A stretch of DNA of 64,000 nucleotides, taken from contig NZ_CANMSJ010000004.1 in the NCBI RefSeq assembly GCF_947500605.1, positions 273,016-337,015 of the forward strand, read 5' to 3'. The translations under genes were made by a program, and so were the position numbers. Source of the DNA: an uncultured Lacinutrix sp. (GTDB taxonomy: Bacteria; Bacteroidota; Bacteroidia; Flavobacteriales; Flavobacteriaceae). Positions 22,932 to 48,634 of this stretch are shown here, piece by piece. Each line of letters opens with the position of its first letter. Positions within the stretch are counted from its first letter, which is position 1. The notes beneath the pieces were generated by a model. The model ran no database searches and was not told the origin of the DNA. It saw nothing but the letters and a program-made list of their open reading frames with translations.

Positions 22932-23016
22932 CAAATGTACAGGAGAAAACAGCCTTGAAATTGTTATTTAGTTTAACCTATAGTTAAGTGTCGACGAATG
23001 GTAGATTGCTGTAGAT
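22932..23016 (-). promoter_or_regulatory. LytTR-type regulon promoter P1 (REC-GT2 operon)
   Basis: On the plus strand tgtcgac (22989) and tgtagat (23010) are 21 bp apart, and a weaker tttagtt lies at 22967. The first box extends to tgtcgacgaatgg. On the minus strand a perfect -7 TACATTTG occupies 22932-22939, 49 bp from the central box. No TTTG -33 element is evident, consistent with activator dependence. The divergent gene at 23082 shares the region. Confidence 0.8.
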
Positions 23017-23081
23017 AATTAAAAATCAAACCACTATTATATTTATTTATCTTTACCATATTATTACAGCTTAGGCTTTAT

Positions 23082-26000
23082 ATGAAGGAAACCTCAAACA
23101 AATTTTTAATCACCGCCATTCTTTTAGCATTGGCGTTTCATGGTAGTGCCATATTTTTTACTTTGGAAACTACTTATGACGCGTTAATACACCTATTTTT
23201 TGCAGATCATTATGCAAACAGTTGGTTTGAACCTTGGAACTACGAGTGGTACACTGGTTTTACGGTACAAAGTTATCCGCCTTTAGTGCATCAAACCATT
23301 GGACTACTGTCCATGATTGGTGGCTTAAAGTTTGGAATGTTTAGTGTGGCCTTAATTGCAATTGTACTATTTGTTACTGGTACGTATCGTTTCTCTCTAA
23401 TGATGACGGCTAATAAAACCGTTGCAGGTTATGCGTGTGTGTTGGCTGTGTTTAGCTCGTCGTTTGTAGAAACGCTTCATATTTTCGGACAGTTACCTAG
23501 TATTGTTGGGGTTTCGGTTTTAATGCATTCCCTTCCTGAGATATATTTATGGTTAAAAACCGGTAAAAAATGGTATTTAGCAACCTCTTTATCACTAATA
23601 GCAGTCACGGTAACTTCACACCATGTGACGCCCATTTTTGGAATGATCTTTTTTATCTTTCCTTTAATAGGAATGGTAATTATGGATGTTTCGCGCGAGC
23701 AAGTCGACACCATGAAAGAAGTGACTTTCAAGCTATTTCTAAACAGTTTTTTTAAACTGTTTAAGCGTATTGTAAGTTTCGGGATGCTTTCATTAGTCTT
23801 AATTGTAGGTTGTATTTTTCCATATTGGCTAAACTCCAAAGCCAATCCAATTACTCAAGTACCCATTCCGCATGGCTCTCGCGATAATTTCTTAGAAATC
23901 ACATCCTCCGGCTTAGTCTTCTTTTTAATTCCTTGGGGAATTTTACTAATATTATTACCCTATATTTTTTATAGATATTACAGCAAACGTTACTTGTTTT
24001 TTGGACTATCAATAACCATTTGCACCATATTAGGTACCGGAGGAACCACTCCTGTACCTTTAAAAATGTTAGGCGAAACTGCTTTTAATATTTTAACCTT
24101 AGATAGGTTTACACTTTGGGCGTCCATATTATCTATTCCTTTAATGGGCGAATTTGTGTATCGTTTTGTTGAAGGTGATTTAAAAGAACTTATTCAGTCT
24201 AAATTTGGCGCTATTTACCATCGTATTATTGGCGGAATATTAGCCGGACTTATGGTATTTATGATTGTATTTACCATGAGTTTAAATTATTTTAGACCGT
24301 CACAACCACAGAAAATAAAGATGTTACCTATCGTTAATTTCTTAAATCAAGACGATCATGATAAATGGCGTTTTTTAACACTAGGTTTTGGCGACCAAAT
24401 GGCGTGGTTAAGTGCGCAAACTAATGCTATGACTGTAGATGGAAACTACCATTCTGCAAGACGATTACCAGAATTAACCACACGACCAATAGAGCGTTTA
24501 GAAAACTCTAAATTTAAAGGTGTTGCCGGAATTGGATCACTACAGCAATTTTTAACAACGCCAGAGAAATACAATCTTAAGTACATATTTTCTAACGATA
24601 AGTTTTACGATCCCATCCTTTACTTTTGTGGTTGGCAACGTTTACGACAATTAGAAAATGGAATTATGGTTTGGGAACGCCTTAACATTCCGCCAGTATC
24701 CTCTATTTTACCTAAAGAAGATGTTGCAAAATGGGTAAAATTAATGTGGGGAATCATTCCGTTTTTAACTGTTTTAATCGCCTTTATTTTAAACATACAA
24801 ATGCTTTGGGTTAATGCTTTAAAAACACGTATTAAACCAGTTCCAGATTTTTTAAAGTTTCCGACTACCTATAATAAGTTTAATAGAAATGTTTTAAGAA
24901 TCACCCACGTTTGGTCATTAATTCTTGCCATAGCAGTGTTTTATGGCATCTACTTATTCTATCTAAAAAACGATTCGCAACGCAGTCCAGAAAATGCCAT
25001 TATCGCATATTACGATGCTTTAGATTTTAAAGAATTTGAAAAAGCGCACAGCTTAATAGATCCTGAAAACAACTTACCAATAGCACAATATATGCTAGAG
25101 ATATCGGTAACGGATGGTTTACTAAGTAGCTATGCAAAAATGGATGCTATTGAAACCGAAATTACAAAACGTAACGACAGTACTGTCTCTGCAAAAGTGA
25201 CTAGTCAATGGATTACGCCTTTAGAGAAAATTGAAAAAATTGACTATAAATCATTATCAAGGCGTAAAGGGAAATGGTATTTACAACCAGACGATTTAAA
25301 TAACGATTTACCACCAGATCAACTATACTCTGATAATGCAACCAAGTATTTTAATCAAGGTAGACGCCGCATTACAACCGAAGCAACACACCATGAAGAC
25401 ATTTTAAAACAACCTGTTTTAGAAGTTGTTTCAGCTAAATTAGTGCAGTATGATGGTAGTTACGCTATAATTGGAGAAGTCCAAAACGTAGATAATGTCC
25501 CTGCAGATGTTATTTTAAAAGGCACACTTTATAACGATAACAACAAGCAACTAGCAACGTATAATGCAAAGTACCACGTTAAGCATAAACTAATGCCTAA
25601 AGAGTCTAGTAGTTTCCGTATTAACTTTGAAGGTATTGCTTGGTCCAGAACACAAGATTCTATTCCAGACACGTTTAATCCAGACGAATTCACACCTATC
25701 GAATTTGAAGAACAACCAACAAAATTTAACTTACAAGTTGCAGGAAATGTTTCGGGATCTGACTTATACAAAAACGTGGTGTTAAGTGCCATTAGCATTA
25801 AAGACAGTATTATAAACGGAAACTTATTTAATAGCGGTATCCAAGAGATTACAATCCCTCAACTTTTAGTAACTTACTATGACGAAAATAAAGACATGGT
25901 TTGGGTAGATCACCTATTTGTAAAAGAAGGTGTAAGACAACAACGTAAGCAAGATTTTGAATACCACATATTACAAGATGGTCAGGTGAAAATAGTTAAT

Positions 26001-26171
26001 ACAGACATGAAAAACATTTTTGTAAATGGTTTACCAAACGATGCCATTGCTGGAAAAATTGTTCCTAACAGAATTGAAAACCATAGCGATGCCCAATTAC
26101 AAAAAATTGACCATCCTGATTTTAGTTATATTAAAATAGAAATTAACACATACATAGGAAGCCCAAATTAA
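23082..26171 (+). CDS. large multi-spanning membrane protein, putative GT-C-like polysaccharide factor
   Basis: A 1029-residue protein. The first ~380 residues hold about nine hydrophobic spans with an early acidic loop (TTYDALIHLFFADHYANSWFEPWNYEW) like GT-C glycosyltransferases and 6-pyruvoyl-synthase-related membrane proteins. Two more spans lie near 550-575 and 610-630. The exported tail has an NTF2/DUF4878-like segment (ENAIIAYYDALDFKEFEKAHSLID) and two FxLYD-like beta domains (VVSAKLVQYDGSYAIIGEVQNVDN). No firm catalytic assignment is possible. It starts an operon with the next two genes (1- and 7-base overlaps) and is divergent from the REC-GT2 operon. Confidence 0.75.
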   Translation: MKETSNKFLITAILLALAFHGSAIFFTLETTYDALIHLFFADHYANSWFEPWNYEWYTGFTVQSYPPLVHQTIGLLSMIGGLKFGMFSVALIAIVLFVTGTYRFSLMMTANKTVAGYACVLAVFSSSFVETLHIFGQLPSIVGVSVLMHSLPEIYLWLKTGKKWYLATSLSLIAVTVTSHHVTPIFGMIFFIFPLIGMVIMDVSREQVDTMKEVTFKLFLNSFFKLFKRIVSFGMLSLVLIVGCIFPYWLNSKANPITQVPIPHGSRDNFLEITSSGLVFFLIPWGILLILLPYIFYRYYSKRYLFFGLSITICTILGTGGTTPVPLKMLGETAFNILTLDRFTLWASILSIPLMGEFVYRFVEGDLKELIQSKFGAIYHRIIGGILAGLMVFMIVFTMSLNYFRPSQPQKIKMLPIVNFLNQDDHDKWRFLTLGFGDQMAWLSAQTNAMTVDGNYHSARRLPELTTRPIERLENSKFKGVAGIGSLQQFLTTPEKYNLKYIFSNDKFYDPILYFCGWQRLRQLENGIMVWERLNIPPVSSILPKEDVAKWVKLMWGIIPFLTVLIAFILNIQMLWVNALKTRIKPVPDFLKFPTTYNKFNRNVLRITHVWSLILAIAVFYGIYLFYLKNDSQRSPENAIIAYYDALDFKEFEKAHSLIDPENNLPIAQYMLEISVTDGLLSSYAKMDAIETEITKRNDSTVSAKVTSQWITPLEKIEKIDYKSLSRRKGKWYLQPDDLNNDLPPDQLYSDNATKYFNQGRRRITTEATHHEDILKQPVLEVVSAKLVQYDGSYAIIGEVQNVDNVPADVILKGTLYNDNNKQLATYNAKYHVKHKLMPKESSSFRINFEGIAWSRTQDSIPDTFNPDEFTPIEFEEQPTKFNLQVAGNVSGSDLYKNVVLSAISIKDSIINGNLFNSGIQEITIPQLLVTYYDENKDMVWVDHLFVKEGVRQQRKQDFEYHILQDGQVKIVNTDMKNIFVNGLPNDAIAGKIVPNRIENHSDAQLQKIDHPDFSYIKIEINTYIGSPN

Positions 26172-28896: not shown

Positions 28897-28930
28897 TACT
28901 TTTAATCAAATACATTATTCGTAGTTCGTT

Positions 28931-29199: not shown

Positions 29200-30447
29200 T
29201 TATTCTAGTGTTGTTGGTTCTAAAACCACTGCTTTTTCTTTTGTTTTTCTTGCTGTTTTACTTGGCGACTTTTTAGCAATAATAGCATCAAACTTATTTA
29301 AATACATGTCTGCAATTTTCTCCATTGGATACGCTGTTGCTGCTTGATAATTAGATTTTCCTAAAGCAATTCTGTGAGCGTCGTTTGTTACAATAGCCTC
29401 AATTGCTGTTGCTAAACTATCTACAGATGTAGGCTCAAAAAATTCACCTTTATAACCTTCGTCTTTTACTAATAAAGCAAGATCTCCTAAATCCGGCATC
29501 ACTACTGCTTTACCATAACTTCCTGCTTGATGTAAAACACCTGAGCTTCCTGTTGTTGATGTATAAGGAAATACAACTACCGCACTTTCTTTAAATAAGG
29601 TTGGCACTTCATATTCTTCAACATACCCCGTAAAACGTACTTGCGGCACATGCTTATAATCTTCTTGGACTTTTGCTAAATAACCTGGCACATTTGGGTT
29701 GTCTGTTCCTGCAATTACAACTTCAAGATCTAATCCTGTAGACGCTCTTACTTTCTCAACCGCTTCAATCATACCCTCTACTTTTTTGTAGGTTCCAAAT
29801 TTACCAAAAGTCATAACTTGTAAAGGACCTTGTGGTAAATCGTATTCTGGCTTTTCTTCAGAAATCTCAAAAGTTCCGTGCGGAATTAATGTCACATTTT
29901 TAGCTTTATATTTTTTCTCTAAAATGTCAACATACTTTTGCATTGTTACTGCAACCGTATCTGCTTGTAAGATTAACCTTGTCAAGCTTGTTCCAATAAA
30001 ACCATATACTTTTTGCATGATTTTGCTACTTGTAAATCCTGCTGATCCTAAATCTACTTCTTCTAATATATTATGCAATAACACGATATTAGGAATCTTT
30101 TTTAGTTTACAAACCAATGGTAACATTAATCCTAAAGCTGCTGCTATTTTTTTGTCTCCAAACTTCATGAATTGTAAGTTGAATAAAACTGCATCTGGCT
30201 TAGTTTTACTTATAGCTTTAGTTACATTTAAAATATTTGTGTAACTATTAAAAGCCCAGCACTCTTTAACTGTAATCTTACAACCATCTTCTGTAAAAGC
30301 AATATCTTTTGCTCCTTCTGTTTTATCTGTTAATAAAACAATTTCAGTAACATTTTCTTTTTGTCTAAAGTGCTTTACTAAATGGTAAGCATACTCATTT
30401 AAAGTTACCTTACTTGGTGGATATGCTGTTACGATTGCTAGTTTCAT
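29200..30447 (-). CDS. GT4 family glycosyltransferase
   Basis: A 415-residue GT-B fold enzyme. The N-terminal half opens LAIVTAYPPSKVTLNEYAYHLVKHF, and the C-terminal nucleotide-sugar half has TFGKFGTYKKVEGMIEAV, the VRFTGYVEEYEVPTLF motif and VVVFPYTSTTGSSGVLHQAGSYGKAVV, typical of GT4. It is cytosolic with no membrane span. The tail (SPSKTARKTKEKAVVLEPTTLE) is a flexible extension. It stands alone under its own LytTR-type promoter and is flanked by two copies of the GAATGACA repeat. With the flippase and TPR-barrel genes it resembles the PelF/PelG/PelB component set (analogy only). Confidence 0.9.
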   Translation of the reverse strand: MKLAIVTAYPPSKVTLNEYAYHLVKHFRQKENVTEIVLLTDKTEGAKDIAFTEDGCKITVKECWAFNSYTNILNVTKAISKTKPDAVLFNLQFMKFGDKKIAAALGLMLPLVCKLKKIPNIVLLHNILEEVDLGSAGFTSSKIMQKVYGFIGTSLTRLILQADTVAVTMQKYVDILEKKYKAKNVTLIPHGTFEISEEKPEYDLPQGPLQVMTFGKFGTYKKVEGMIEAVEKVRASTGLDLEVVIAGTDNPNVPGYLAKVQEDYKHVPQVRFTGYVEEYEVPTLFKESAVVVFPYTSTTGSSGVLHQAGSYGKAVVMPDLGDLALLVKDEGYKGEFFEPTSVDSLATAIEAIVTNDAHRIALGKSNYQAATAYPMEKIADMYLNKFDAIIAKKSPSKTARKTKEKAVVLEPTTLE

Positions 30448-30486: not shown

Positions 30487-30571
30487 CAAATTTGCGTTAT
30501 TAAAGAGACATATTCAGTTGAGTTTAGATAGGTTGCAAGTTGCTGTCGACGAATGGAAAGTAAGTGTCGTT
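30487..30571 (-). promoter_or_regulatory. LytTR-type regulon promoter P2 (GT4 gene)
   Basis: Plus-strand boxes tgtcgac (30544, extended tgtcgacgaatgg) and tgtcgtt (30565) are 21 bp apart; tttagat at 30523 is a further 21 bp towards the gene. A -7-like CAAATTTG (30487-30494, one mismatch to TANNTTTG) lies 49 bp from the central box. Confidence 0.75.
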
Positions 30572-30689
30572 TCACTTTTTTATCGATGGTTGTATTTTAA
30601 TGTTTTTATGAAGAAATGATGAAAATAATCTTTTCATTTAGAAGGAGATGCCACTTAAAAATCTATACTTCCTACAACACTCTTATATG

Positions 30690-30746: not shown

Positions 30747-31991
30747 TTACTTCTCATTCTTCACATTAAAAATAAAGAAAGACAATTGCATGACTAACAA
30801 TAACACCATTGCTATAATCTGCATGTGTACTACCTGCTCTAAACTGTCATGAAAAAAGATAACTAATACCATTTGAAGCATTCCGAAGATTCCTGAAATT
30901 ACTACAGGAATAAATTTATCTAACGATAAGTAGTAATAAGCAAAGATGTTTGATATGGCAAACAAACCTGTTGCTAATGCGTACTTCCATAATAATGGAG
31001 CCATCTCCAAATAGCTATCTCCAAATAACATGGTAATTGCTGTTTCTGGAAACAATGCGCAACCAATAACTATTGCTGTTGCAATTGCTGCGATGTAACC
31101 AACGTATTCAAATAAAATAGGCGCTGTTGCTTTTCCTTCTTTTTTAAGCTGAACCACTGTTGGCAATAATAACATGACAAACATCCAAGCTACGAAGTAT
31201 ACTATACGACCTATTAAAGCTAAAGAAGCGTACAAACCTGCATCGTAAGCATCAAAGTAATGTTTCACTAATAAGATGTCACTATTGTTAATTATAATCT
31301 GTGTAAGCTCGTAAAACGCTGTAATTATAAAAAAGCTTTTAACTTGTTTAGATTGGCTAGCTTCAATAGCAATTGATTTTTTAAAGTTTAAGTTTTTAAA
31401 TTTGAAAGGCACTAAACCAAATCCAAAAGAGATTAAAATTCCGATAGCAATCACAACCGAAGATTGTATATCAAACAAAAAGATTAACGCTAACGTAATT
31501 ACTAATCGACTTAGCATTTCAGCTTGATAGGTAATTGATAAAGACTTGAATTCTTTTTTACCTTGAAAGACACCTCTGTTTACACTCATTAAAAAGTATA
31601 AAGGCACCCCAATTCCAAAAATAGTAAACATGCTAGAAGACGACGTATTAAAAACCGCTTGTAATTGATTTGCAAAAACAATAATTAACGCTCCCAACCC
31701 TAAACCAACAATTGTTGCATTTTTATAAAATTTTGAAATAAAATTTGTAAAAGTTTCGTTTTCAAAAACCACAGAAAACTTTGCAGTTACCAATTGAAAC
31801 GTCATAGCTACAAAAGATAGCACTAATAAAAAGGTAATTAATACAGCAGCATCTGCAAATTGTGCTGGACCTAACACACGACCTAAAATAAGATTGTACA
31901 AATAATTTCCTCCATTTACTGCCAATACGCTTAGCATAAACAATTGTTCTTGAGATATTTTTTTTGGTATTGAAAGAGATAGAGCTTGCAT
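30747..31991 (-). CDS. polysaccharide flippase (Wzx/MATE-like)
   Basis: A 414-residue integral membrane protein with about 12 hydrophobic spans and the oligosaccharide-flippase opening LFMLSVLAVNGGNYLYNLILGRVLGPAQFADAAVL. The middle has NRGVFQGKKEFKSLS and a basic loop FKFKNLNFKKSI. It should move lipid-linked or nascent glycan across the inner membrane. It lies 27 bases behind the STAS gene and shares its promoter. Length and topology also fit PelG-type proteins, but sequence alone does not decide between Wzx and PelG. Confidence 0.88.
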   Translation of the reverse strand: MQALSLSIPKKISQEQLFMLSVLAVNGGNYLYNLILGRVLGPAQFADAAVLITFLLVLSFVAMTFQLVTAKFSVVFENETFTNFISKFYKNATIVGLGLGALIIVFANQLQAVFNTSSSSMFTIFGIGVPLYFLMSVNRGVFQGKKEFKSLSITYQAEMLSRLVITLALIFLFDIQSSVVIAIGILISFGFGLVPFKFKNLNFKKSIAIEASQSKQVKSFFIITAFYELTQIIINNSDILLVKHYFDAYDAGLYASLALIGRIVYFVAWMFVMLLLPTVVQLKKEGKATAPILFEYVGYIAAIATAIVIGCALFPETAITMLFGDSYLEMAPLLWKYALATGLFAISNIFAYYYLSLDKFIPVVISGIFGMLQMVLVIFFHDSLEQVVHMQIIAMVLLLVMQLSFFIFNVKNEK

Positions 31992-32018: not shown

Positions 32019-32297
32019 TTAGGCTATGTTAGAAAACTGATAATCTTCGTAGATTTCTTCACTTCTAAAGCCTGTAACAAAAAATGGATTACTTTTTAAT
32101 GCTTCATTTTTATACATTTCTTTTAATGTATAAAGTGCAGATTCATCAATTTCAGTAACCTTATCAAAGTCAATGGTTAAGTTTCTAAAAGGATTTTGAA
32201 TTAATCCAAAATGCATTTTAAAGTTTCTTACCGTTGTTGCGTTTAATTTACCTTCTAATGTAATTGTATTGTCTTGTTGTGAAATTGTTAATGCCAT
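32019..32297 (-). CDS. STAS domain protein (anti-sigma-factor-antagonist-like)
   Basis: I take the ATG at 32297 (MALTISQQDNTITLEGKL), giving 92 residues; an upstream ATG at 32339 overlaps the predicted -7 region. The fold is STAS: alternating strands, NLTIDFDKVTEIDESALYTLKEMYK with a serine at the usual phosphorylation-loop position, and FFVTGFRSEEIYED. Such proteins are switch partners. Here it is coupled to a flippase gene and a LytTR-type promoter, so control of polysaccharide export is the natural guess. No cognate serine kinase is seen in the window. Confidence 0.8.
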   Translation of the reverse strand: MALTISQQDNTITLEGKLNATTVRNFKMHFGLIQNPFRNLTIDFDKVTEIDESALYTLKEMYKNEALKSNPFFVTGFRSEEIYEDYQFSNIA

Positions 32298-32336
32298 AAT
32301 TGTTATTTTTAAATTGTTTGTGTTTGATTTCTGATA

Positions 32337-32400
32337 CAAAGATGCGACGCAAACCTCTCAAAGACTTTTGAATTTCGATGAGTGGACCATTGGTGTAGAC
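32337..32400 (-). promoter_or_regulatory. LytTR-type regulon promoter P3 (STAS/flippase operon)
   Basis: The plus-strand central box tgtagacgaatg (32394) and tttcgatgagtgg (32373; 10 of 13 identical to the full box) are 21 bp apart. The distal box at 32415 is poor. A -7-like CATCTTTG (minus strand, 32337-32344) lies 49 bp from the central box. Confidence 0.7.
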
Positions 32401-32449
32401 GAATGATTGAATATGAATGCTTAACTTGCAAATGATTTAAAACTAGAAC

Positions 32450-41010: not shown

Positions 41011-41094
41011 CAAATTTACTTTTATAGCTTGCCTTAAAAAGTGTTTTTCGTTTAGCGTAATTTAAGTGTAGACGAATGGTAATTCTCTGTAGAC
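41011..41094 (-). promoter_or_regulatory. LytTR-type regulon promoter P4 (T9SS surface protein)
   Basis: Two identical plus-strand boxes tgtagac (41067 and 41088) are 21 bp apart, the first extended as tgtagacgaatgg. A third, tttcgtt, lies at 41046, again 21 bp away. A perfect -7 TAAATTTG (minus strand, 41011-41018) lies 48 bp from the central box. Confidence 0.85.
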
Positions 41095-41103
41095 AAACAC
41101 TTT

Positions 41104-41598
41104 TTATAGCTTTACAAAGATGTTAGTAAAGTAGTTTTTACCTTCTTCGTCTTGTTGTGTTGAAATACCAAAGTCTGTAAAATCTGGATTTTCTATATTT
41201 TGCCTGTGCCCTTCACTATTTAACCAAGCATTAACTAACGATTGTGCATTAGTAAAGCCAAAGCCTACATTTTCTGAAACGTTTTCGGCATTTACAGCAT
41301 CTATTATATTTTGAGATCTTAAATAAAAATAATCGTGACTTAATGCGCCTTGATTAACCATATACTGACTATGTGTAATAGCTTCTCTAGACACTTCGTT
41401 TAGTATATTTAAAGCATTAAGACCTTGAGAAATTCTATAACTATTAATAAGCTCTGCAATTTCATAATCTAACTGCGTGTATGTTACATTTGTGTTTTGC
41501 GAACTATATTCATTAGGTATGTTTGCCTCTTCTTCAACTGAGCAAGACATTAAAAACGTACTAAACAAAACGGCTATTAAAATTATATTTTTCATCAT
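41104..41598 (-). CDS. CAP (SCP/PR-1) domain lipoprotein
   Basis: A 164-residue lipoprotein (lipobox TFLMSC, Cys 19) with a CAP domain: LDYEIAELINSYRISQGLNAL, SREAITHSQYMVNQGALSHD, ENVGFGFTNAQSLVNAWLNSEGHRQNIENP, and DFGISTQ. These match the bacterial YkwD type. The role is unknown; CAP proteins are often extracellular. It stands alone under a LytTR-type promoter. Confidence 0.93.
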   Translation of the reverse strand: MMKNIILIAVLFSTFLMSCSVEEEANIPNEYSSQNTNVTYTQLDYEIAELINSYRISQGLNALNILNEVSREAITHSQYMVNQGALSHDYFYLRSQNIIDAVNAENVSENVGFGFTNAQSLVNAWLNSEGHRQNIENPDFTDFGISTQQDEEGKNYFTNIFVKL

Positions 41599-41617: not shown

Positions 41618-41702
41618 CAAAATTAATTTGAAAGACAGCTGTGTTTTATATTTTTCGATTATTACAATTCTAAGTATAGACGAATGGTAGAATACTAAAG
41701 TT
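41618..41702 (-). promoter_or_regulatory. LytTR-type regulon promoter P5 (CAP lipoprotein)
   Basis: The plus-strand central box tatagacgaatgg (41675) is followed 21 bp further by a weak taaagtt (41696), and tttcgat lies at 41653 (22 bp). A perfect -7 TAATTTTG (minus strand, 41618-41625) lies 49 bp from the central box. The rest of the 364-base gap 41599-41962 holds a terminator and no gene. Confidence 0.72.
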
Positions 41703-41798
41703 AAACCTACAAAAGTACTATTAACCGATTATTCCCACACTTAAAAAAAAACACAACACTTCTCTATTTGAAGCAATTAGGAGAATTTAACGCATAAA

Positions 41799-41962: not shown

Positions 41963-42676
41963 TTATAGTAAGTTTAAGCGTTTCATTAGTTCTGGTCGGT
42001 TAGATCTACTAACCGGAATAACATCTTTTTTAATTAAAACACTGTTATCTTCAATGTCAATAATTTTTTTGATGTTAATAATGTAAGACCTGTGTACTTT
42101 TAAAAACAAACTGTCTGGTAGTTTTTCTTCAATTTTTTTAAGTGTAGAATGCACTGTATAATTTTTATCTTCAGTTTTAACCTGTATATAATCGCCTTTG
42201 GCCTCAACCAAATAAATACTTGGTATATCTATTTTAATTAAACGCCTGTCTATATTTACATATAAATCATTACCAGAAGTAGTTTCTACATTTTGAGATT
42301 TAGACTCTGGTTTTATTGCCGTTTCTTGCTTCGCTTCAGCTTTATCTATTGCTTTTAAAAAGCGCTCTTGTGTAATTGGCTTTACTAAATAATCTACAAT
42401 ACAATCGTACTCGAAAGCTTGAATTGCAAAGTTAGGGTCTGATGTTGTAAGTACTATTTTTGGTGGATTTTTTAGTGTTTCAATAAAATCGAAACCTGTA
42501 AAATCTGGCATGTGTATATCTAAGAAAATTAAATCTACTTCGTTTTGATTTAAATACTTTATGGCCTGCATTGCATTAGGAAACTCTTCTAAAACATTAA
42601 GACTTGGTGCACGCGAGCATAATTGAGTAATAATCATTCTTGCAGTAGCTTCATCATCAATAATAATACAATTCAT
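41963..42676 (-). CDS. LytTR-type DNA-binding response regulator
   Basis: A 237-residue regulator. The receiver domain (1-125) has DD at 7-8, phospho-acceptor D53 in LIFLDIHMP, and K99 in YLVKP. The LytTR domain (~137-237) shows DIPSIYLVEAKGDYIQVKTEDKNYTVHSTL, then LFLKVHRSYIINIKKI and the terminal IPVSRSNRPEL. LytTR proteins bind direct repeats about 21 bp apart, exactly the pattern found at seven promoters here. It is the last gene of the sensor operon, 9 bases after the Hpt gene, and is the best candidate regulator of those promoters (inference). Confidence 0.95.
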   Translation of the reverse strand: MNCIIIDDEATARMIITQLCSRAPSLNVLEEFPNAMQAIKYLNQNEVDLIFLDIHMPDFTGFDFIETLKNPPKIVLTTSDPNFAIQAFEYDCIVDYLVKPITQERFLKAIDKAEAKQETAIKPESKSQNVETTSGNDLYVNIDRRLIKIDIPSIYLVEAKGDYIQVKTEDKNYTVHSTLKKIEEKLPDSLFLKVHRSYIINIKKIIDIEDNSVLIKKDVIPVSRSNRPELMKRLNLL

Positions 42677-42685
42677 AAATAATAT

Positions 42686-43003
42686 TTAGAGGGTCTTTAA
42701 GTAGTTAGTAATGCTGTCTAATATTGCTTCAAATTCTTCTTTTTGGTCTATACTACCATCTAGCAAATTATTCTCGTAAGCAACTGCAACTTCATAACCT
42801 TTTTCAAGCCCTAAAATACTAATTTTATGCTTAAGTTTATGCACATTATCTGCCGCTAACTTATAATTTTTAGCATTATAGTTATTTACGTAGACTTCTT
42901 TTTCTTCTGGATACTCGCTTTTAATAACATCTATAAGTTTTTGCTTAAAAGCTTCGTCTCCTCCAGACAAACTATTAATGTAAGATTGATTAGGTTGTTC
43001 CAT
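42686..43003 (-). CDS. histidine phosphotransfer (Hpt) protein
   Basis: A 105-residue helical protein. The Hpt motif is AADNVHKLKHKISILGL (residues 51-67), with the phospho-accepting His in VHKLKH. It has no other domain. It overlaps the upstream kinase gene by 14 bases and lies 9 bases before the LytTR regulator, so it probably relays phosphate among the two kinases and the regulators. In Pseudomonas the NosP-linked kinase NahK also uses an Hpt protein (HptB). Confidence 0.9.
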   Translation of the reverse strand: MEQPNQSYINSLSGGDEAFKQKLIDVIKSEYPEEKEVYVNNYNAKNYKLAADNVHKLKHKISILGLEKGYEVAVAYENNLLDGSIDQKEEFEAILDSITNYLKTL

Positions 43004-44054
43004 TTGGGATTTTTTTTAAGGTGAAATAAAAAGTAGTTCCAACATTAACTTGAGATTCTAGCCATATTTTACCACCATATAACTCTACTATTTTCTTAAC
43101 TATAGACAAACCTATTCCAGAGGATTCTGGATTGTTTTCTAGTTTTTCGAAAGTTTTAAATATTTTTTCGAAGTAAGTGTCTTCGATACCTTTTCCGTTA
43201 TCTTTTATATAAAACTGCCAATAGTTGTCTTGATCTTCAAAGCCAATATCTATAATTCCTTCTGCTTTATCATTATACTTTACAGCATTCCCAATTAAAT
43301 TTTGAAACAACTGCTGCAGCCTATATTTATCTCCTTTGGTTATTGGTAAATTAGACTTTGTTATATTAATATGACTTGGAATTTGAATACTATTTAAAAT
43401 ATCTTCAATAAGATTATTTACATCTACATCGTAAACTTCTATTTGATTTTTACCAATTGTTGAATACTCTAGAATACCACTAATTAAGGTATCCATTTTT
43501 TCAACATTTGTTCTTATCAGTTTTAGTGTGTTTTTTCCATTTTCATCGAAGGTTTCTTCATAATCTTGAGCCAACCAAGTTGTTAATGTATCTATACTAC
43601 GTAATGGTGATTTTAAATCGTGAGATACCATGTGTGCATAATCACTAAGCTCCTGATTTTGATGCGCAAGCTCGTTTAACATCGATTGTTTTTGCTTGTT
43701 AACCTGAACGATTTCTTTGGTTTGACTATCGATAAAATCTACCAAATTAGAACCTGTTAACTCTACATCGTCTGCTTTTTCGTCTTCTTTTAAATTATAA
43801 AACTTTAATGTATCGATAACACTTTTAAGCTTATCGATAACTTCTTTTTGCTCGTCTGCTTCCTTTTGTAATTTTCTATTAGCAAGATATAATTCGTCTG
43901 AACTAATAGCCATTGCTCTTTGAATCATTACAGACTGCTCATCAAAATTATTGTAAGACAGGTCTACAGCATTAATAAACTCTGCTATGTCTTCATTGTT
44001 TTTTAATTCGTTACTTAAAAATTTACGAATTTGCCTTTTTAATAATGAATTCAT
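42990..44054 (-). CDS. soluble histidine kinase paired with the FIST protein (NahK-like position)
   Basis: I take the ATG at 44054, which overlaps the FIST stop by one base (TAATG) and gives 354 residues; an in-frame ATG at 44102 lies inside the FIST gene. The N-terminal part is helical and coiled-coil. The kinase core has AHMVSHDLKSPLRSIDTL (phospho-His), GNAVKYND, KDNGKGIED and SSGIGLSIVKKIVELYGG. There is no membrane span or PAS domain, so its input must come from another protein, most likely the FIST sensor. Its core is very similar to that of the kinase at 45190-47145. Confidence 0.93.
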   Translation of the reverse strand: MNSLLKRQIRKFLSNELKNNEDIAEFINAVDLSYNNFDEQSVMIQRAMAISSDELYLANRKLQKEADEQKEVIDKLKSVIDTLKFYNLKEDEKADDVELTGSNLVDFIDSQTKEIVQVNKQKQSMLNELAHQNQELSDYAHMVSHDLKSPLRSIDTLTTWLAQDYEETFDENGKNTLKLIRTNVEKMDTLISGILEYSTIGKNQIEVYDVDVNNLIEDILNSIQIPSHINITKSNLPITKGDKYRLQQLFQNLIGNAVKYNDKAEGIIDIGFEDQDNYWQFYIKDNGKGIEDTYFEKIFKTFEKLENNPESSGIGLSIVKKIVELYGGKIWLESQVNVGTTFYFTLKKIPNGTT

Positions 44055-45187
44055 TATTCGCTTATTAGCGTTATGGTCATGGTTTGATTGTGTAATTGAC
44101 AACTAGTTTCTCCATGAAAAGGAGCTATTTCTCCATAAGAATAAAAGCCACTTGTTACAGCATCCTTACCAATAACTTCTATAACCTCTTCTATTTCTTC
44201 TTCAACACGCTGATCTAGCACTAGCTTTCTACCTATACAGCTTACTAATATTGCTAATTCAGGTTTGTTTTTTCTGTACTCTAATGCTTGTTTTGCTGCA
44301 CGTTCTGATGCGTTTGCAATGTTATCTACATTAGTCATCATTAGCTGTACTTTGGAATCTTCTTTAATATCTCCTGCTAATATTACAGCATTTTCCTCTT
44401 CATTTATATTTAAAATAGACCTAACAATAGATTGTTTTTCGTCTGTAGAAGTTACATTTAAAGGATACAACAAAGCCGCTCCTGGTAAATCTTTAGCTTT
44501 ATCTCCTAAATATTTTTTATACAAGTCTAAAGCAGGTTGCCCATCTAATTCATATAAAATATTGCCTTTAGACTTTGTTACAATACGCTCTGGTCCAAAA
44601 GGCGTCCATCCGCCATGTATTGAAAAAGAAATTTCTAAGCTATCTCCATAAAAACCAATAGCGACTAATTCTCCTTCTTTTGGGTTTTCGTTGTAAGATG
44701 CTAATGTTTTTTCAAAGCGTGCATCGTCACCACACAAACCTCCAGTTATTACTAAATTATCGTTTGTTGAAGCACTCATACCTTTGGTAAGTTGACTACC
44801 ATTAATAAAACTGCCTTCAGAAACCACAAACACGTATTTTAAACCTTCTTGAGGCAATTGCTCAATAAGTTCTTTTCCTGTTTTATAACTATCTAAATCT
44901 GCATTTAAAACATTACTAGTTTTAATTACAAACTTGCTTTTTTCAAACTCGATAGCTGTTATAGTAATACTATCTTGATTTACTGTATCTGATGATATTT
45001 CGGCACATGAAGATGCAAAAACAATATGTCCATCTGGAAATAACTGTTTAATATCTGTATAAACAGCATCGTCTTCTAACATATATCTGTTACCAAAAAC
45101 CAATACTAAAGGTTCTTTTAGATCTTGTTTTTCTATAACATATTCCCAATCTTTATTTTTATGCTTGACTAACTGTACTGTTTTCAT
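44054..45187 (-). CDS. FIST domain (NosP-like) sensor protein
   Basis: A 377-residue cytosolic protein of FIST_N plus FIST_C type. FIST_N covers ~25-220 (PLVLVFGNRYMLED, HIVFASSCAEISSD, VITGGLCGDDARFEKT). FIST_C follows (~225-365) with FGPERIVTKSKGNILYELDGQPALDLYKKYLG, LPGAALLYPLN and FYSYGEIAPFHGET. NosP proteins are heme-binding FIST proteins that sense nitric oxide and inhibit an adjacent kinase. This gene is followed at once by a soluble kinase and an Hpt gene, the NosP-NahK-Hpt order. I cannot confirm heme binding from the sequence; other FIST proteins may bind different small ligands. Confidence 0.92.
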   Translation of the reverse strand: MKTVQLVKHKNKDWEYVIEKQDLKEPLVLVFGNRYMLEDDAVYTDIKQLFPDGHIVFASSCAEISSDTVNQDSITITAIEFEKSKFVIKTSNVLNADLDSYKTGKELIEQLPQEGLKYVFVVSEGSFINGSQLTKGMSASTNDNLVITGGLCGDDARFEKTLASYNENPKEGELVAIGFYGDSLEISFSIHGGWTPFGPERIVTKSKGNILYELDGQPALDLYKKYLGDKAKDLPGAALLYPLNVTSTDEKQSIVRSILNINEEENAVILAGDIKEDSKVQLMMTNVDNIANASERAAKQALEYRKNKPELAILVSCIGRKLVLDQRVEEEIEEVIEVIGKDAVTSGFYSYGEIAPFHGETSCQLHNQTMTITLISE

Positions 45188-45189
45188 TT

Positions 45190-47145
45190 TTATTTTTTTA
45201 ATGTGAAATAAAAGGTGGTACCAACATTTGGCTCACTATCTAACCATATTTCACCTTCATGTAAATTGATAATTTTTTTGACGATAGACAATCCTATTCC
45301 CGAAGAATCTTTACTTTTCTTTAAAGAATGAAATATCTTAAATATTTTGTCGTGATATTTCTTTTCAATCCCAATTCCATTATCTTTTATTGAAAATTTG
45401 TAGTGACTTTTAAAATCTTCTACATCTATTGTAATACTGCCACATTCTTTATCTATAAACTTAACAGAATTGCTAATTAAGTTTTGAAACACTTGCTGTA
45501 GCTTAGTTTTATCTCCTTTTATATTTGGTAATACATTAAGACTTTTAAATTCTATGTGGTCGGGTATATATAACATACTAACCAACTCATTAACCATACT
45601 ATTTAAATCGACATCTACTTTTACAGAATTATCTGCACCAACGCTAGAGTAGTTTAAAACATCTGTTATTAGCTGTTCCATTTTCTCTAAAGTAGACTCG
45701 ATAAGTGCAAAATTTTGAAGACTTGTAGCATCTAAACTCCCTTGATTATCTTCTTTTAACCAGCTAACCAAAGCATTAATACTACGTAAAGGTGATTTTA
45801 AATCGTGCGATACAATGTGTGCATATTCTTGAAGTTCGTCGTTACTTTTTTCTAGCTTTTCTAAAAGTTTTTCTTTTTGAAGCTCTAAACTTTTAGTATC
45901 AGTAACATCTAAATGTATTCCTATAGACCCAATAACTTCTCCATCTATATTGTAATTTGGTGCGCCACTAACTAACCAATGTCTTGTTTTTCCTTTTTTA
46001 CAAATGGCTTTAAACTCATAAGAGTTTGATATACCTTCTTTTCGTTTTTCGCGTTCTTTTTTTAATATATCTGCGTCTTCAGCAGCAAAAAGCGTCCTTG
46101 CATTTTTGCCTATAACTTCTGCTTCTGTATAACCAGACATTTTCTCAAAGCTTTGATTTACCATTAGGATTTCGTCGTTATTATTCAACTCCACCATCCC
46201 TAGGTTCATATTCGCAATAATATTGTAATATTTTTGCTTTTGTGCTTCTAAACTTTTTCTGTAAGTGCGTTTTAAGGTAACATCGGTAAAGGTCCATAAA
46301 TATCCTTTAGACTTTTCTCCAATTACTATTGGTGTATAGTTACGTTCTAAAATTTTACCATCCACCATCTCTAACTCATCACCAAGTACTACTTTTTTAT
46401 TAGCATCAATAGCTCGCATTCTTTCTATAAAAGCGTCTGGGTTTTTAAATAAAATTTTATTTTGTTCTGATGCTACTTTACAATCTAAGCCTACTAAATC
46501 TTTAGGACTAGCATTTATTCCAAAAAGCTCACAAAACTTGTTATTAGTAAGTACTATATTTCTGTTTTCATCTTCTAAAACAATACCACTATCTAGATTT
46601 ACAACAAGTGATGCTAATCTATTTTCTGATTCAATTAATTTTTCCTCGGAAGCTTTTTGGTGAGATATATCTCTAACAATACCTTGTGCTGCAACAGGTT
46701 TTTTGTTTTTATCGAAAATTACACTTGCATTTATGTGTACCCATTTAACCTCTTTAGATTTAGTATACACTCTAGCTTCGTAATTTTTAAAATAGCCTTT
46801 GGTTTGTAACTCTAGAAAAGAAGACATTGCATATTGGTAGTCTTCTTTATAAATAAGATCCACAACATTTACCTCATCTCTATTAATATCGTAGCCAAAT
46901 AACTTGGTTGCTGCCTCATTAAATTTTATGAATCTTCCTTGTATATCCATAACAACATATGCATCTACAATGTTTTCGAATACACCCTGAAGTTGTGAGG
47001 ATTTTTGATCTAGAAGTTCTTCTAGTTTTTGGGAAGTTGAGTAAAGATCTCTTGATTTTTCTTCAAGAATTTTTTCGGCAGCTTTTCTTGCCGCTTTTTC
47101 TCTTTTTAAAGCACGTTGTAATATTTCAACTTGTTCTTGACCCAT
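45190..47145 (-). CDS. soluble multi-PAS histidine kinase paired with H-NOX (HnoK-like)
   Basis: A 651-residue kinase without membrane spans. An N-terminal coiled coil (~5-50) precedes three PAS domains: ~52-165 (GVFENIVDAYVVMDIQGRFIKFNEAA), ~175-290 (LDSGIVLEDENRNIVLTNNKF) and ~305-420 (ANMNLGMVELNNNDEILMVNQSF). The core has AHIVSHDLKSPLRSINAL (phospho-His), SNSVKFID, KDNGIGIEKK and SSGIGLSIVKKIINLHEG. Its ATG overlaps the H-NOX stop by one base (TAATG), so the two are translated together. H-NOX-linked kinases are usually inhibited by the NO-bound sensor. Confidence 0.94.
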   Translation of the reverse strand: MGQEQVEILQRALKREKAARKAAEKILEEKSRDLYSTSQKLEELLDQKSSQLQGVFENIVDAYVVMDIQGRFIKFNEAATKLFGYDINRDEVNVVDLIYKEDYQYAMSSFLELQTKGYFKNYEARVYTKSKEVKWVHINASVIFDKNKKPVAAQGIVRDISHQKASEEKLIESENRLASLVVNLDSGIVLEDENRNIVLTNNKFCELFGINASPKDLVGLDCKVASEQNKILFKNPDAFIERMRAIDANKKVVLGDELEMVDGKILERNYTPIVIGEKSKGYLWTFTDVTLKRTYRKSLEAQKQKYYNIIANMNLGMVELNNNDEILMVNQSFEKMSGYTEAEVIGKNARTLFAAEDADILKKEREKRKEGISNSYEFKAICKKGKTRHWLVSGAPNYNIDGEVIGSIGIHLDVTDTKSLELQKEKLLEKLEKSNDELQEYAHIVSHDLKSPLRSINALVSWLKEDNQGSLDATSLQNFALIESTLEKMEQLITDVLNYSSVGADNSVKVDVDLNSMVNELVSMLYIPDHIEFKSLNVLPNIKGDKTKLQQVFQNLISNSVKFIDKECGSITIDVEDFKSHYKFSIKDNGIGIEKKYHDKIFKIFHSLKKSKDSSGIGLSIVKKIINLHEGEIWLDSEPNVGTTFYFTLKK

Positions 47146-47684
47146 TAGTTTTTGTGAATAATAAATCTAACTTCAGTTCCGTCTTCTTTAATTTTTTCTA
47201 ATTCAATTTTTGCAGTTGAATTAAAATGCTCAAAAGTTTTATTCATTAATCCTAGACCAAAATGATGCATTGCTCTACTTGATGTATATATCATTACTAA
47301 TGAATTTTCTGTTTTTTCGACGACTTCAAAAGTTGGCAACTCGGCGTCTGGATATATTTTTCTTACCTCAACATGAATATGGTTTTCTATAGAAGAAATC
47401 ATTTCTATTGGATCTTTATATGTTGCCAAAAGACCTGGATAACTTTTTTCTATAACACTAAAAAAGTGTTCTGCATAAACCAATAATAAATTATCTATTG
47501 ATATTCCAGTATTCTCACTTAAATGCTGTAATAATTGTAGCATTTCTGAAAAACTATAAGTCCCTACTGCTGTATAAACACCTTCAGATTCTAATTTAGA
47601 ATTTGTTATAATATTGTCTACCATTTCTAGACCAAACTTATCCTCTACTAACTCTAAAAACTCCGTAAAAACTATTCCTTTCAT
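47145..47684 (-). CDS. H-NOX (heme nitric oxide/oxygen-binding) sensor
   Basis: A 179-residue protein with H-NOX hallmarks: the N-terminal MKGIVFTEFLELVEDKFG, YAEHFF in the middle, proximal heme ligand His104 in HVEVRKIYPDAELPTFEV, and the heme-propionate motif YxSxR as Y133-T-S135-S-R137 followed by MHHFGLGLMNKTFEHF. Stand-alone bacterial H-NOX proteins bind NO and signal to an adjacent kinase. Whether it binds O2 (distal tyrosine) cannot be decided by eye. It sits second in the operon, 3 bases after the receiver gene and overlapping the PAS kinase. Confidence 0.94.
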   Translation of the reverse strand: MKGIVFTEFLELVEDKFGLEMVDNIITNSKLESEGVYTAVGTYSFSEMLQLLQHLSENTGISIDNLLLVYAEHFFSVIEKSYPGLLATYKDPIEMISSIENHIHVEVRKIYPDAELPTFEVVEKTENSLVMIYTSSRAMHHFGLGLMNKTFEHFNSTAKIELEKIKEDGTEVRFIIHKN

Positions 47685-47687
47685 TTA

Positions 47688-48101
47688 TTACACTACTATT
47701 AATTCATTTATACTCCAATATGCTAATAATTTTTCAATTTTACTAACATAATCCTCATACTTTAAGGGTTTTAAAACATAACCAGCAACTCCTGTTTTGT
47801 AACATTCCAACAAATCTTTTTGATTATTTGAAGTTGTTAAAATTATTGTTGGTATGTATTTTAATACGTCGTCCTTTTTTAAAATATTTAAAAACTCAAT
47901 ACCATTTATTTTTGGCATGTTTAAATCTAATAAAATAATATCAGGTAAATTATCTTTTTGTTCTAAAATACCTAAAGCATCTTCACCATTATTAGCTTCT
48001 ATAATTTTGTGGTCTAATTTTAAGGTAGAAATTGTTCTATTCAATTTCATTATTTCAATCATATCATCTTCAATTAGAAGAATTTTAAGGTTTTTAGTCA
48101 T
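47688..48101 (-). CDS. single-domain response regulator, first gene of the NO-sensing operon
   Basis: I use the ATG at 48101 (MTKNLKILLIEDD), 137 residues; a longer reading would need a TTG at 48131 inside the -7 element. The receiver has EDD, phospho-acceptor in IILLDLNMPKINGIEFL, TTSN switch and YVLKPLKYEDYV. There is no output domain. It is placed before H-NOX, so it could be a phosphate sink or second branch of the relay. The promoter at 48129-48212 has LytTR-type boxes. Confidence 0.92.
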   Translation of the reverse strand: MTKNLKILLIEDDMIEIMKLNRTISTLKLDHKIIEANNGEDALGILEQKDNLPDIILLDLNMPKINGIEFLNILKKDDVLKYIPTIILTTSNNQKDLLECYKTGVAGYVLKPLKYEDYVSKIEKLLAYWSINELIVV

Positions 48102-48128
48102 TGTGAGGGTGTTTATTTTGAATATCTC

Positions 48129-48212
48129 CAAAACTACATCTATTAAAAAGGTTGAAATTTAAATTTCGATTAGAGCTATTTAAGTGTAGACCAATAACGT
48201 TTAAGTGTCGAC
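48129..48212 (-). promoter_or_regulatory. LytTR-type regulon promoter P6 (sensor/phosphorelay operon)
   Basis: The plus-strand boxes tgtagac (48185) and tgtcgac (48206, extended tgtcgacgaatgg) are 21 bp apart, and tttcgat (48164) is another 21 bp away. A perfect -7 TAGTTTTG (minus strand, 48129-48136) lies 48 bp from the central box. Because the operon ends with the LytTR regulator, this suggests autoregulation. Confidence 0.85.
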
Positions 48213-48231
48213 GAATGGAAATGAGTTATTT

Positions 48232-48519
48232 TTAGCTTTTGCAATAATCTATAGACTGTAGAGTATTTAACTTTGCATAATGCTTGACTTTACTAAGTTC
48301 TAAAAGAAAGTTTAGAGAATAATTATCCTCCTTTTTTTTATCTAACGTCATTTCTAAACAAGATATAAACTCTAGCTGCTTTAAACAAGCATGTAAATGT
48401 TTACAATCTTTTGCTTTTAGTCTTTGCTTTTCTTGCTGTTTATTACCAGTCTTTTTTACTAAGGAATTGGTATTAATTCTAAATATTTTGGAAAGAATAC
48501 TACTATTAAGAAGGTTCAT
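48232..48519 (-). CDS. small protein of unknown function, 95 residues
   Basis: I do not recognise this protein. It has a basic stretch KKTGNKQQEKQRLKAKDCKH and four cysteines (two as CKHLHAC, one in ISCLEM, one near the end), with a helical C-terminal half and no signal peptide or membrane span. It lies directly upstream of the sensor operon on the same strand and has a promoter of the same architecture at 48550-48634, so it probably belongs to the regulon. It could be a small adaptor or DNA/RNA-binding protein, but the sequence does not decide. Confidence 0.65.
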   Translation of the reverse strand: MNLLNSSILSKIFRINTNSLVKKTGNKQQEKQRLKAKDCKHLHACLKQLEFISCLEMTLDKKKEDNYSLNFLLELSKVKHYAKLNTLQSIDYCKS

Positions 48520-48549
48520 GTTTGAGGAGGTTATTAATTAATTATGGTT

Positions 48550-48634
48550 CAAAATTAATAGTATAAACTCCTTAACTTCTTTTTATTCTTTAGACTATAG
48601 GTTTTATGTCGATAAATAACACGAAAGCTTAGAT
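48550..48634 (-). promoter_or_regulatory. LytTR-type regulon promoter P7 (95-residue unknown gene), weaker
   Basis: The plus-strand box tgtcgat (48607) and weak cttagat (48628) are 21 bp apart. A perfect -7 TAATTTTG (minus strand, 48550-48557) lies 49 bp from the central box, the same spacing as in the other six. The proximal third box is not clear. Confidence 0.55.

What the first reader, a model, noticed from the sequence alone, without database searches (positions are those of the whole stretch)
22932..48634. Seven promoters share 21-bp-phased direct repeats at a fixed distance from the -7 element: a LytTR regulon
Plus-strand boxes with core TGTMGACGAATGG occur upstream of seven minus-strand transcription units (boxes at 22989/23010, 30544/30565, 32373/32394, 41067/41088, 41675/41696, 48185/48206, 48607/48628), with a period of 21 bp in each pair. 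In six cases a third box (TTTMGAT-like) lies 21-22 bp nearer the gene. The central box to the TANNTTTG-like -7 element is 48-49 bp in all seven (seen directly). Direct repeats of this period are known for LytTR regulators such as AgrA and ComE. A LytTR regulator gene lies inside the set (41963-42676). The common spacing at promoters of different genes is hard to explain by chance.
Basis: partly seen in the sequence, partly recalled or inferred. Interest (0 to 1): 0.95.

Follow-up and report, generated by a model that had tools for sequence, protein, structure and literature searches.

The report
Nitric-oxide relay controlling slime-gene promoters
Seven promoters in this flavobacterium carry the same repeated DNA boxes 48-49 bases from the promoter's -7 element, likely making them one set of predicted slime and surface-protein genes that would be switched by a DNA-binding protein at the end of a likely nitric-oxide-sensing relay encoded among them.

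Summary
In detail: seven minus-strand promoters carry three boxes at 21 (21-22) bp, the central box 48-49 bp from a TANNTTTG-like -7 element. By leave-one-out matrix, six of seven have no equal in the window or a 400-kb genome sample; the seventh (before a 95-aa ORF) is weak alone but recurs in relatives. In 80 named flavobacterial loci the same arrays occur (248 scored, reversed-sequence control 5); where the -7 element scores well (138 of 248) it is at 48/49 bp in 133. In 299 family genomes, exact 48/49-bp sites occur in 33 of 113 with an orthologue-grade LytTR match and 0 of 186 without. The LytTR gene ends the operon REC - H-NOX - PAS kinase - FIST - kinase - Hpt-like - LytTR; this H-NOX is 85% identical to the solved Kordia algicida H-NOX, encoded in the same kind of operon. 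Best reading: an H-NOX (plus NosP-like FIST) phosphorelay ending in a LytTR regulator that likely activates its own operon and exopolysaccharide/surface-protein genes. Sites, spacing and co-occurrence are shown by sequence; DNA binding, NO sensing, phosphotransfer and the sign of the response are inferred. New variant of a known kind.

The parts
41963..42676 (-). LytTR response regulator (REC + LytTR DNA-binding domain), the predicted binder
   Evidence: Pfam PF04397 77.2 bits, PF00072 69.5 bits; orthologue 84-98% in 7 of 12 other genomes of the genus; receiver and C-terminal LytTR domain strongly conserved in 80 relatives
42686..43003 (-). Hpt-like phosphotransfer protein
   Evidence: PF01627 20.1 bits, below its cut-off of 24.6; conserved VHKlKHKI motif in 79 relatives
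42990..44102 (-). histidine kinase next to the FIST gene
   Evidence: PF02518, PF00512; found in 50 of 80 relative loci
44054..45187 (-). FIST protein (NosP-like candidate NO sensor)
   Evidence: PF08495 150.5 bits, PF10442 123.1 bits; found in 49 of 80 relative loci; no solved relative at E<=0.001
45190..47145 (-). multi-PAS histidine kinase
   Evidence: Pfam; in 78 of 80 loci
47145..47684 (-). H-NOX haem NO-binding family protein
   Evidence: PF07700 135.8 bits; 85% identical to PDB 6bdd chain; H102 and YTSSR present
47688..48131 (-). single-domain receiver, first gene of the operon (listed TTG start lies in the -7 element; true start likely downstream)
   Evidence: PF00072 78 bits; 78 of 80 loci
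48162..48218 (-). box array before the H-NOX/LytTR operon: distal 48203-48218, central 48182-48197, proximal 48162-48173
   Evidence: scored array before REC in 74 of 78 relative loci holding that gene, though with a well-scored -7 at 48/49 bp in only 16 of 75
48129..48136 (-). -7 element TAGTTTTG of the operon, gap 48
48584..48640 (-). weakest box array, before the 95-aa ORF 48232-48519
   Evidence: leave-one-out score equalled 1 + 7 times; array in 9 of 14 relative loci holding the ORF
48550..48557 (-). -7 element TAATTTTG, gap 49
41652..41708 (-). box array before CAP-domain gene 41104-41598
   Evidence: 14 of 15 relative loci holding CAP
41618..41625 (-). -7 element TAATTTTG, gap 49
41044..41100 (-). 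box array before DUF6923/Por_Secre_tail gene 38378-40984
   Evidence: 38 of 63 relative loci holding it
41011..41018 (-). -7 element TAAATTTG, gap 48
32371..32427 (-). box array before STAS gene 32019-32339 and flippase-like gene 30747-31991: central 32391-32406, proximal 32371-32382, distal weak
   Evidence: 30 of 40 relative loci holding STAS
32337..32344 (-). -7 element CATCTTTG, gap 49
30521..30577 (-). box array before glycosyltransferase 29200-30447
   Evidence: 24 of 29 relative loci holding this glycosyltransferase
30487..30494 (-). -7 element CAAATTTG, gap 49
22966..23022 (-). box array before receiver-glycosyltransferase fusion 21717-22934
   Evidence: found at the same gene in 7 of 7 genus relatives whose cluster was fetched
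22932..22939 (-). -7 element TACATTTG, gap 49

Best explanation
The seven box arrays are likely binding sites of the LytTR response regulator encoded at 41963-42676, which is predicted to activate its own operon and a set of predicted exopolysaccharide and secreted surface-protein genes as the last step of a likely nitric-oxide-sensing phosphorelay. Shown by sequence: the arrays, their 48-49 bp distance to the -7 element, the operon REC / H-NOX / PAS kinase / FIST / kinase / Hpt-like / LytTR, the genes that follow the arrays, and the co-occurrence of arrays and regulator across genomes. Inferred: H-NOX, and in roughly half of the loci seen a NosP-like FIST protein, controls a partner kinase; phosphate passes kinase to REC to Hpt to the LytTR receiver; phosphorylated LytTR binds the direct repeats cooperatively, with the proximal box at about -44, and recruits polymerase to promoters that lack a -33 TTG. 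By analogy with systems in which NO-bound H-NOX or NosP inhibits its kinase, NO would lower LytTR phosphorylation and turn the slime and adhesin genes down; this sign is the least certain step.
For: (1) Leave-one-out: 6 of 7 sites unmatched elsewhere. (2) 80 named loci (best 80 of 562 kept): 322 central-box hits over 15 bits on the LytTR strand, 2 on the other, 9 in reversed sequence; -7 gap peaks at 48 (40) and 49 (73) of 120 with the gap free from 40 to 58; combined scan 248 arrays in 79 of 80 loci, reversed control 5. (3) 299 family genomes: 48/49-bp sites in 33 of 113 with an orthologue-grade match, 0 of 186 without (Fisher 4e-16, not corrected for relatedness); the 5 exact-pattern hits in genomes without it have other gaps. 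(4) An array stands before the operon in 74 of 78 loci. (5) LytTR is the only DNA-binding family that Pfam reports among the operon's seven products. (6) In other relatives arrays precede different exopolysaccharide-type genes: UDP-sugar dehydrogenase, OEP-family protein, a Wzy_C protein, and a protein with a sub-threshold GNVR match. (7) In G216 arrays lie about 1.4 and 2 Mb from the operon, which argues for a diffusible regulator. (8) TTG at the -33 position is rare in 145 sites (1.4% against 7.5% in shuffles). (9) In the genus, H-NOX occurs in exactly the 8 of 13 genomes with the LytTR orthologue. (10) The K. algicida H-NOX of PDB 6bdd is 179/179 identical to the H-NOX of locus L153, which has the same operon and arrays.
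Against: No binding, expression or NO data exist here. The exact pattern finds 48/49-bp sites in only 33 of 113 genomes with the regulator, so other lineages have different or degenerate sites. In relatives 110 of 248 scored arrays have no good -7 score at 46-51 bp; at the operon promoter only 16 of 75 have the best -7 at 48/49, 7 at 69/70 (as if the strongest box were the distal one) and 43 none. L144 has the whole operon but no scored array; L116 has operon and arrays but no H-NOX. G012 keeps an array without the regulator (a likely deletion remnant). The genome has 24 matches to this protein (some may match only its receiver), so a paralogue could share the sites. The Hpt match is below Pfam's cut-off. 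The reversed pattern hits 50 of 299 genomes (25 with, 25 without the regulator), more than the true pattern's 44, so only spacing plus co-occurrence discriminates. The H-NOX neighbour kinase has PAS domains of its own, unlike HqsK.
Confidence: 0.84

Rival explanations
1. The arrays are LytTR sites, but NO is not the signal: H-NOX and FIST answer another ligand or redox state, or the relay is driven mainly by the PAS domains of the kinase.
For: The kinase has several PAS domains; the FIST gene was not found in 31 of 80 loci, a few of them cut contigs; L116 lacks H-NOX yet keeps arrays and LytTR.
Against: H-NOX is in 76 of 80 loci, three of the other four being cut contigs; H102 is conserved in at least 97% of them and the YxSxR Tyr and Ser too, its Arg less so; bacterial H-NOX and NosP proteins studied elsewhere sense NO (passages of PMC6769237 and PMC12570481).
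Confidence: 0.2
2. Another LytTR paralogue of the same genome binds the arrays, and the linked LytTR only shares or lacks this specificity.
For: 24 matches to the protein in the genome, not all necessarily LytTR.
Against: Sites at 48/49 bp track this orthologue (33 of 113 against 0 of 186). Five genus genomes have 8-25 matches but no orthologue: four have no exact site and the fifth, G012, has a likely relict one; two of the four are 78% and 89% complete.
Confidence: 0.08
3. LytTR represses rather than activates at these arrays.
For: Nothing specific; the sign cannot be read from sequence alone.
Against: Boxes end upstream of the core promoter (proximal box about -44) rather than over the -7 or the start, and the -33 TTG is rare; published LytTR repeats 4-11 bp upstream of -35 mediate positive autoregulation (PMC6193735, passages).
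Confidence: 0.1
4. The arrays are chance or duplicated promoter segments without a common regulator.
For: The orf95 array alone is not rare (equalled 8 times); identity around the -7 is somewhat above random (0.35-0.38 against 0.28-0.29).
Against: Six arrays unmatched in the sample, upstream flanks not alike, arrays conserved before unrelated genes in relatives, reversed control 5 against 248.
Confidence: 0.02

Closest known systems
LytTR direct-repeat regulons (AgrA, ComE as recalled; HdrR/BrsR in PMC6193735)
   Same: 9-bp half-sites with 12-bp spacers (period 21) just upstream of the core promoter, and a site at the regulator's own operon; published repeats such as ACCACTTAC-12 bp-ACCACTTAC (PMC6193735, passages).
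   Different: Three boxes instead of two, an extra conserved CCATTCG before the central box, Bacteroidota-type -7 promoters with little trace of a -33 TTG, and an H-NOX/Hpt-like operon as input.
H-NOX - histidine kinase - phosphotransfer pathways (Vibrio harveyi HqsK-LuxU, Shewanella)
   Same: H-NOX encoded or working with a kinase, a phosphotransfer step, control of biofilm-type functions (PMC6769237, passages).
   Different: HqsK has no sensory domain, the kinase here has PAS domains. Outputs in the passages seen are LuxU/LuxO, c-di-GMP metabolism and a flagellin effect (HnoC seen only as a title in a reference list); here the output is a LytTR regulator predicted to act directly on exopolysaccharide promoters.
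NosP (FIST) - NosK systems
   Same: FIST gene next to a histidine kinase gene; FIST-domain NosP proteins bind haem and sense NO (PMC12570481, abstract and passages).
   Different: FIST and H-NOX sit in one operon with one Hpt-like gene and one LytTR gene; haem binding by this FIST protein was not tested.
LytTR regulatory systems (LRS, PMC6193735)
   Same: LytTR regulator with direct repeats before its own operon (passages).
   Different: No membrane-protein partner; a receiver domain and relay parts instead.

Membership tests
LytTR response regulator | REC plus LytTR domain over curated cut-offs | tested here: met
   PF04397 77.2 (cut-off 22.6), PF00072 69.5 (cut-off 30.2) bits
LytTR direct-repeat regulon | direct repeats of period about 21 bp resembling ACCACTTAA upstream of promoters | tested here: met
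   published repeats; distal boxes are the least complete
LytTR direct-repeat regulon | fixed phase to the core promoter, in the species and in relatives | tested here: met
   48/49 bp in 7 of 7; peak at 48/49 in 80 loci, 133 of the 138 arrays with a well-scored -7, out of 248
LytTR direct-repeat regulon | site at the regulator's own operon | tested here: met
   window 48162-48218; 74 of 78 loci; -7 spacing there clear in a minority of relatives
LytTR direct-repeat regulon | regulator binds the repeats | not testable with these tools
   needs gel-shift, footprint or ChIP
H-NOX | PF07700 over cut-off, haem ligand His102 and YxSxR motif | tested here: met
   H102 and YTSSR; H102 at >=97% in 76 relatives. 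The motif's meaning is recalled
H-NOX | binds haem and NO | not testable with these tools
   85% identical to the K. algicida H-NOX of PDB 6bdd
NosP (FIST) | FIST N and C domains beside a histidine kinase gene | tested here: met
NosP (FIST) | haem binding and NO response | not testable with these tools
   needs a bench test; no solved relative found
Hpt phosphotransfer protein | Pfam Hpt over cut-off with phospho-His motif | tested here: inconclusive
   20.1 bits against cut-off 24.6; conserved VHKlKHKI motif

The most novel reading that the evidence does not exclude
Flavobacteriaceae run a previously undescribed nitric-oxide switch: one or two haem sensors (H-NOX, often with a NosP-type FIST protein) feed a REC-Hpt relay whose output is a LytTR activator, and that activator directly owns whatever exopolysaccharide and surface-adhesin genes the species carries, because sites with three boxes phased at 48/49 bp stand in front of different polysaccharide gene sets in different lineages.
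Probability: 0.65. Interest if true: 0.82.

Novelty: new variant of a known kind. Interest (0 to 1): 0.72.

Why it matters
H-NOX and NosP pathways are known to me mainly from Proteobacteria, and in the reviews seen they mostly end in c-di-GMP enzymes or quorum-sensing relays. Here the sequence gives a complete candidate path in Bacteroidota, from NO-sensor family to exact promoter sites to target genes. An orthologue-grade LytTR match is in 113 of 299 sampled genomes of the family; whether each has the whole operon was not tested. It places the solved Kordia algicida H-NOX, called the least studied of the crystallized ones (PMC7356049, passage), in a pathway with defined promoters, offers seven promoters as reporters for NO-controlled slime formation, and supplies a candidate LytTR binding code for a phylum where I know of few regulator motifs.

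Tried and rejected
Tried: Rfam scan of the window gave only a tRNA, so no known RNA family explains the arrays. Sequence search of the LytTR domain against solved structures gave one weak LytTR-type relative (3d6w, E 2e-4) and one chance hit, so no residue-level comparison with AgrA was made. FIST had no solved relative.

Rejected: chance; promoter duplication. A wider own-genome regulon at high stringency: the fixed 49-bp pattern with up to 3 mismatches has 12 hits, reversed control 11; the four hits with 0-1 mismatch all lie in the cluster, as do two of the eight with 3 mismatches. Weaker distant targets in the own genome are not excluded. The G000 exact-pattern hit on contig C2 lies inside an ORF and is taken as chance. 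Direct S-nitrosylation of the DNA-binding domain (proposed for AgrA) is unlikely for this protein: its three Cys residues (3, 20, 92) are outside the LytTR domain, residues 145-234.

The apparent counter-example G012 (array, no close LytTR, no H-NOX) looks like a remnant: its contig runs orf95 - shortened REC (126 aa) - a 456-aa remainder of the 1029-aa gene - receiver-glycosyltransferase, so what lies between in the window is missing there; I cannot exclude an assembly error.

Dropped or limited: one search kept the best 80 of 562 relatives. The gap range was limited to 46-51 bp; the unbiased gap test is. Of 248 arrays, 26 have no ORF called within 400 bp downstream, 17 of these within 2 kb of the locus end. 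The receiver-glycosyltransferase has an array directly before it in only 1 of 16 of the 80 loci holding a relative; in 8 of these 16 the relative lies on the other strand. Flippase: 6 of 38; it usually follows STAS. Downstream genes in L104, L120, L132, L163 and G216 were judged by sequence start or blastp to the window, not by Pfam. Papers: search listings; passages seen in PMC6769237, PMC12570481, PMC6193735, PMC7356049, PMC8738867, PMC9723704; none read whole.


Full report
Observation. The window (31% G+C) lies in a 3.5-Mb genome, G000 contig C4; the best named match of its LytTR protein is Lacinutrix algicola, 98%. All seven arrays exist. On the transcribed strand they read: distal box, 21 bp, central box (best form CCATTCGTCKACACTT), 21-22 bp, proximal TAAWCGAAA-like box, 32-33 bp, TANNTTTG-like -7 element; from the end of the 13-base central box to -7 is 48 bp in two and 49 bp in five. 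The -7 box of flavobacteria covers -12 to -5 (PMC9723704, passage), so the proximal box lies near -44, the central near -65 and the distal near -86.

Chance. Each site was scored with a matrix from the other six, at 48/49 bp. Six of seven have no equal in the rest of the window (about 128,000 positions) or in 400 kb of the same genome (800,000 positions); the orf95 site is equalled 1 + 7 times. Mean pairwise identity is 0.51 in the boxes, 0.31 upstream, 0.35 between proximal box and -7 and 0.38 after -7, against 0.28-0.29 for random pairs, so the promoters are not recent copies. In the own genome the fixed 49-bp pattern gives 12 hits at up to 3 mismatches (reversed control 11); the four with at most one mismatch are all in this cluster.

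Independent test in relatives. A scan with the LytTR protein gave 80 named loci (the best of 562), 77-98% identical, with titles of Flavobacteriaceae or unresolved Flavobacteriales/Bacteroidia. With the window-derived matrix, central-box hits above 15 bits number 322 on the LytTR strand, 2 on the other and 9 in reversed sequence; of 120 with a scored -7 element within 40-58 bp, 73 are at 49 and 40 at 48, and of three in reversed sequence none is. The combined scan (gap 46-51) lists 248 arrays in 79 of 80 loci, 245 on the LytTR strand, 10 inside called ORFs; reversed sequence gives 5. Only 138 of the 248 have a well-scored -7 in that range, 133 of them at 48/49. Loci with an array before the gene out of loci holding it: REC (operon) 74 of 78, CAP 14 of 15, STAS 30 of 40, glycosyltransferase 24 of 29, Por/DUF6923 38 of 63, orf95 9 of 14, flippase 6 of 38, receiver-glycosyltransferase 1 of 16. 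At the operon promoter the best -7 lies at 48/49 in 16 of 75, at 69/70 in 7 and scores too low in 43, and 30 of 75 have a second box 20-22 bp nearer the gene, so this promoter is less regular than the others. The consensus of 145 selected sites (gap 48/49, good scores) shows all three boxes, the distal one least complete.

Swapped targets. In L102, L104, L118, L120, L132, L152 and L163 arrays precede other genes. Pfam on representatives gives UDP-glucose/GDP-mannose dehydrogenase and an OEP-family protein (L102), Wzy_C (L118, 32.0 bits, cut-off 31.7) and a GNVR match below its cut-off (L152); the rest were judged by sequence start. In G216 the operon is near 40 kb and exact sites stand at 2.03-2.04 Mb, around genes whose starts resemble those (one 31% like the receiver-glycosyltransferase), and at 1.42 Mb beside a run of secreted repeat proteins.

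Phyletic test. In 299 family genomes the exact pattern TTCGTCKACA-N46-52-TANNTTTG hits 44 genomes, 39 of which hold an orthologue-grade match (E <= 1e-70; 113 of 299 do). Gaps of 48/49 occur in 44 hits from 33 genomes, all with that match; the 5 hits in genomes without it have gaps of 46, 47, 47, 47 and 50. Of the 44 hits, 31 lie within 50 kb of the regulator. The reversed-pattern control hits 50 genomes, 25 with and 25 without the regulator, so the raw number of genomes hit is not informative; spacing and co-occurrence are. Genomes are related, so the Fisher value (4e-16) overstates independence. In the genus, the orthologue and H-NOX occur in the same 8 of 13 genomes. The exact pattern hits these 8 plus G012, which lacks both and looks like a deletion remnant; the other 4 genomes have no hit.

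The pathway. The operon is REC, H-NOX, PAS kinase, FIST, kinase, Hpt-like, LytTR. In the 80 loci LytTR, Hpt, REC, PAS kinase and H-NOX are found in 80, 79, 78, 78 and 76, FIST in 49; three of the four loci without H-NOX are cut contigs, while L116 lacks it. The H-NOX has His102 and YTSSR and is 85% identical to chain 6bdd, the Kordia algicida H-NOX according to PMC7356049 (passages); the H-NOX of Kordia algicida OT-1 locus L153 is 179/179 identical to it and sits in the same operon with arrays before the REC and Por genes. Kinase H-boxes, receiver Asp regions and the Hpt motif are conserved. H-NOX and FIST-domain NosP proteins sense NO and control partner kinases elsewhere (PMC6769237, PMC12570481; passages).

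Mechanism. Separate REC, Hpt-like and LytTR-receiver proteins after kinases without receivers is the layout of a four-step phosphorelay; this is inference. The KACACTTAA half-site with 12-bp spacer fits published LytTR repeats. Position upstream of the core promoter and scarcity of TTG at -33 (1.4% of 145 sites against 7.5% in shuffles) fit an activator. NO-bound H-NOX or NosP inhibits its kinase in several described systems, so NO would turn the target genes down; but in V. harveyi NO raises biofilm, so the physiological sign is uncertain.

Known or new. Searches for H-NOX with LytTR, with Bacteroidetes and histidine kinase, with Flavobacteri and biofilm, LytTR with Bacteroidetes, direct repeat and promoter, with Flavobacteri and exopolysaccharide, and LytTR with nitric oxide and Hpt listed no paper that by title and abstract start describes an H-NOX or NosP pathway ending in LytTR; only an open-licence library was searched and most of the listed papers were not opened. 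I therefore call it a new variant of known kinds: a LytTR direct-repeat regulon joined to an H-NOX/NosP-type relay.

Noticed in passing
21717-22934: A receiver domain fused to a family 2 glycosyltransferase in one protein, itself behind an array: possible direct phosphorylation control of a sugar transferase.
   Followed up: no
L174 (G012:C9:64000-83999), about 8736-12210: Loss of the stretch from within REC to within the 1029-aa gene, taking H-NOX through the glycosyltransferase, leaving both edges and a relict array; could be an assembly error.
   Followed up: partly
L209 (G142), 9971-12242: Two successive Hpt-LytTR gene pairs with arrays after each.
   Followed up: no
L116: Operon with REC, PAS kinase, Hpt and LytTR but no H-NOX, arrays kept.
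   Followed up: partly
L205 (G216:C1:1408000-1422000), 4950-8466: Run of related proteins, several with 'VGINTT(N/D)PQR'-like starts; an array sits before the last ORF of the run, which has no Pfam match.
   Followed up: no
36285-38187: Plus-strand PAS kinase and single-domain receiver pair between the targets; no scored array before it.
   Followed up: no
22934, 32339, 48131: Longest-ORF TTG starts of three target genes fall inside the -7 elements, so starts taken from the longest frame are probably wrong there.
   Followed up: partly
48232-48519: 95-aa ORF without a Pfam match, with relatives in 14 of 80 loci.
   Followed up: no
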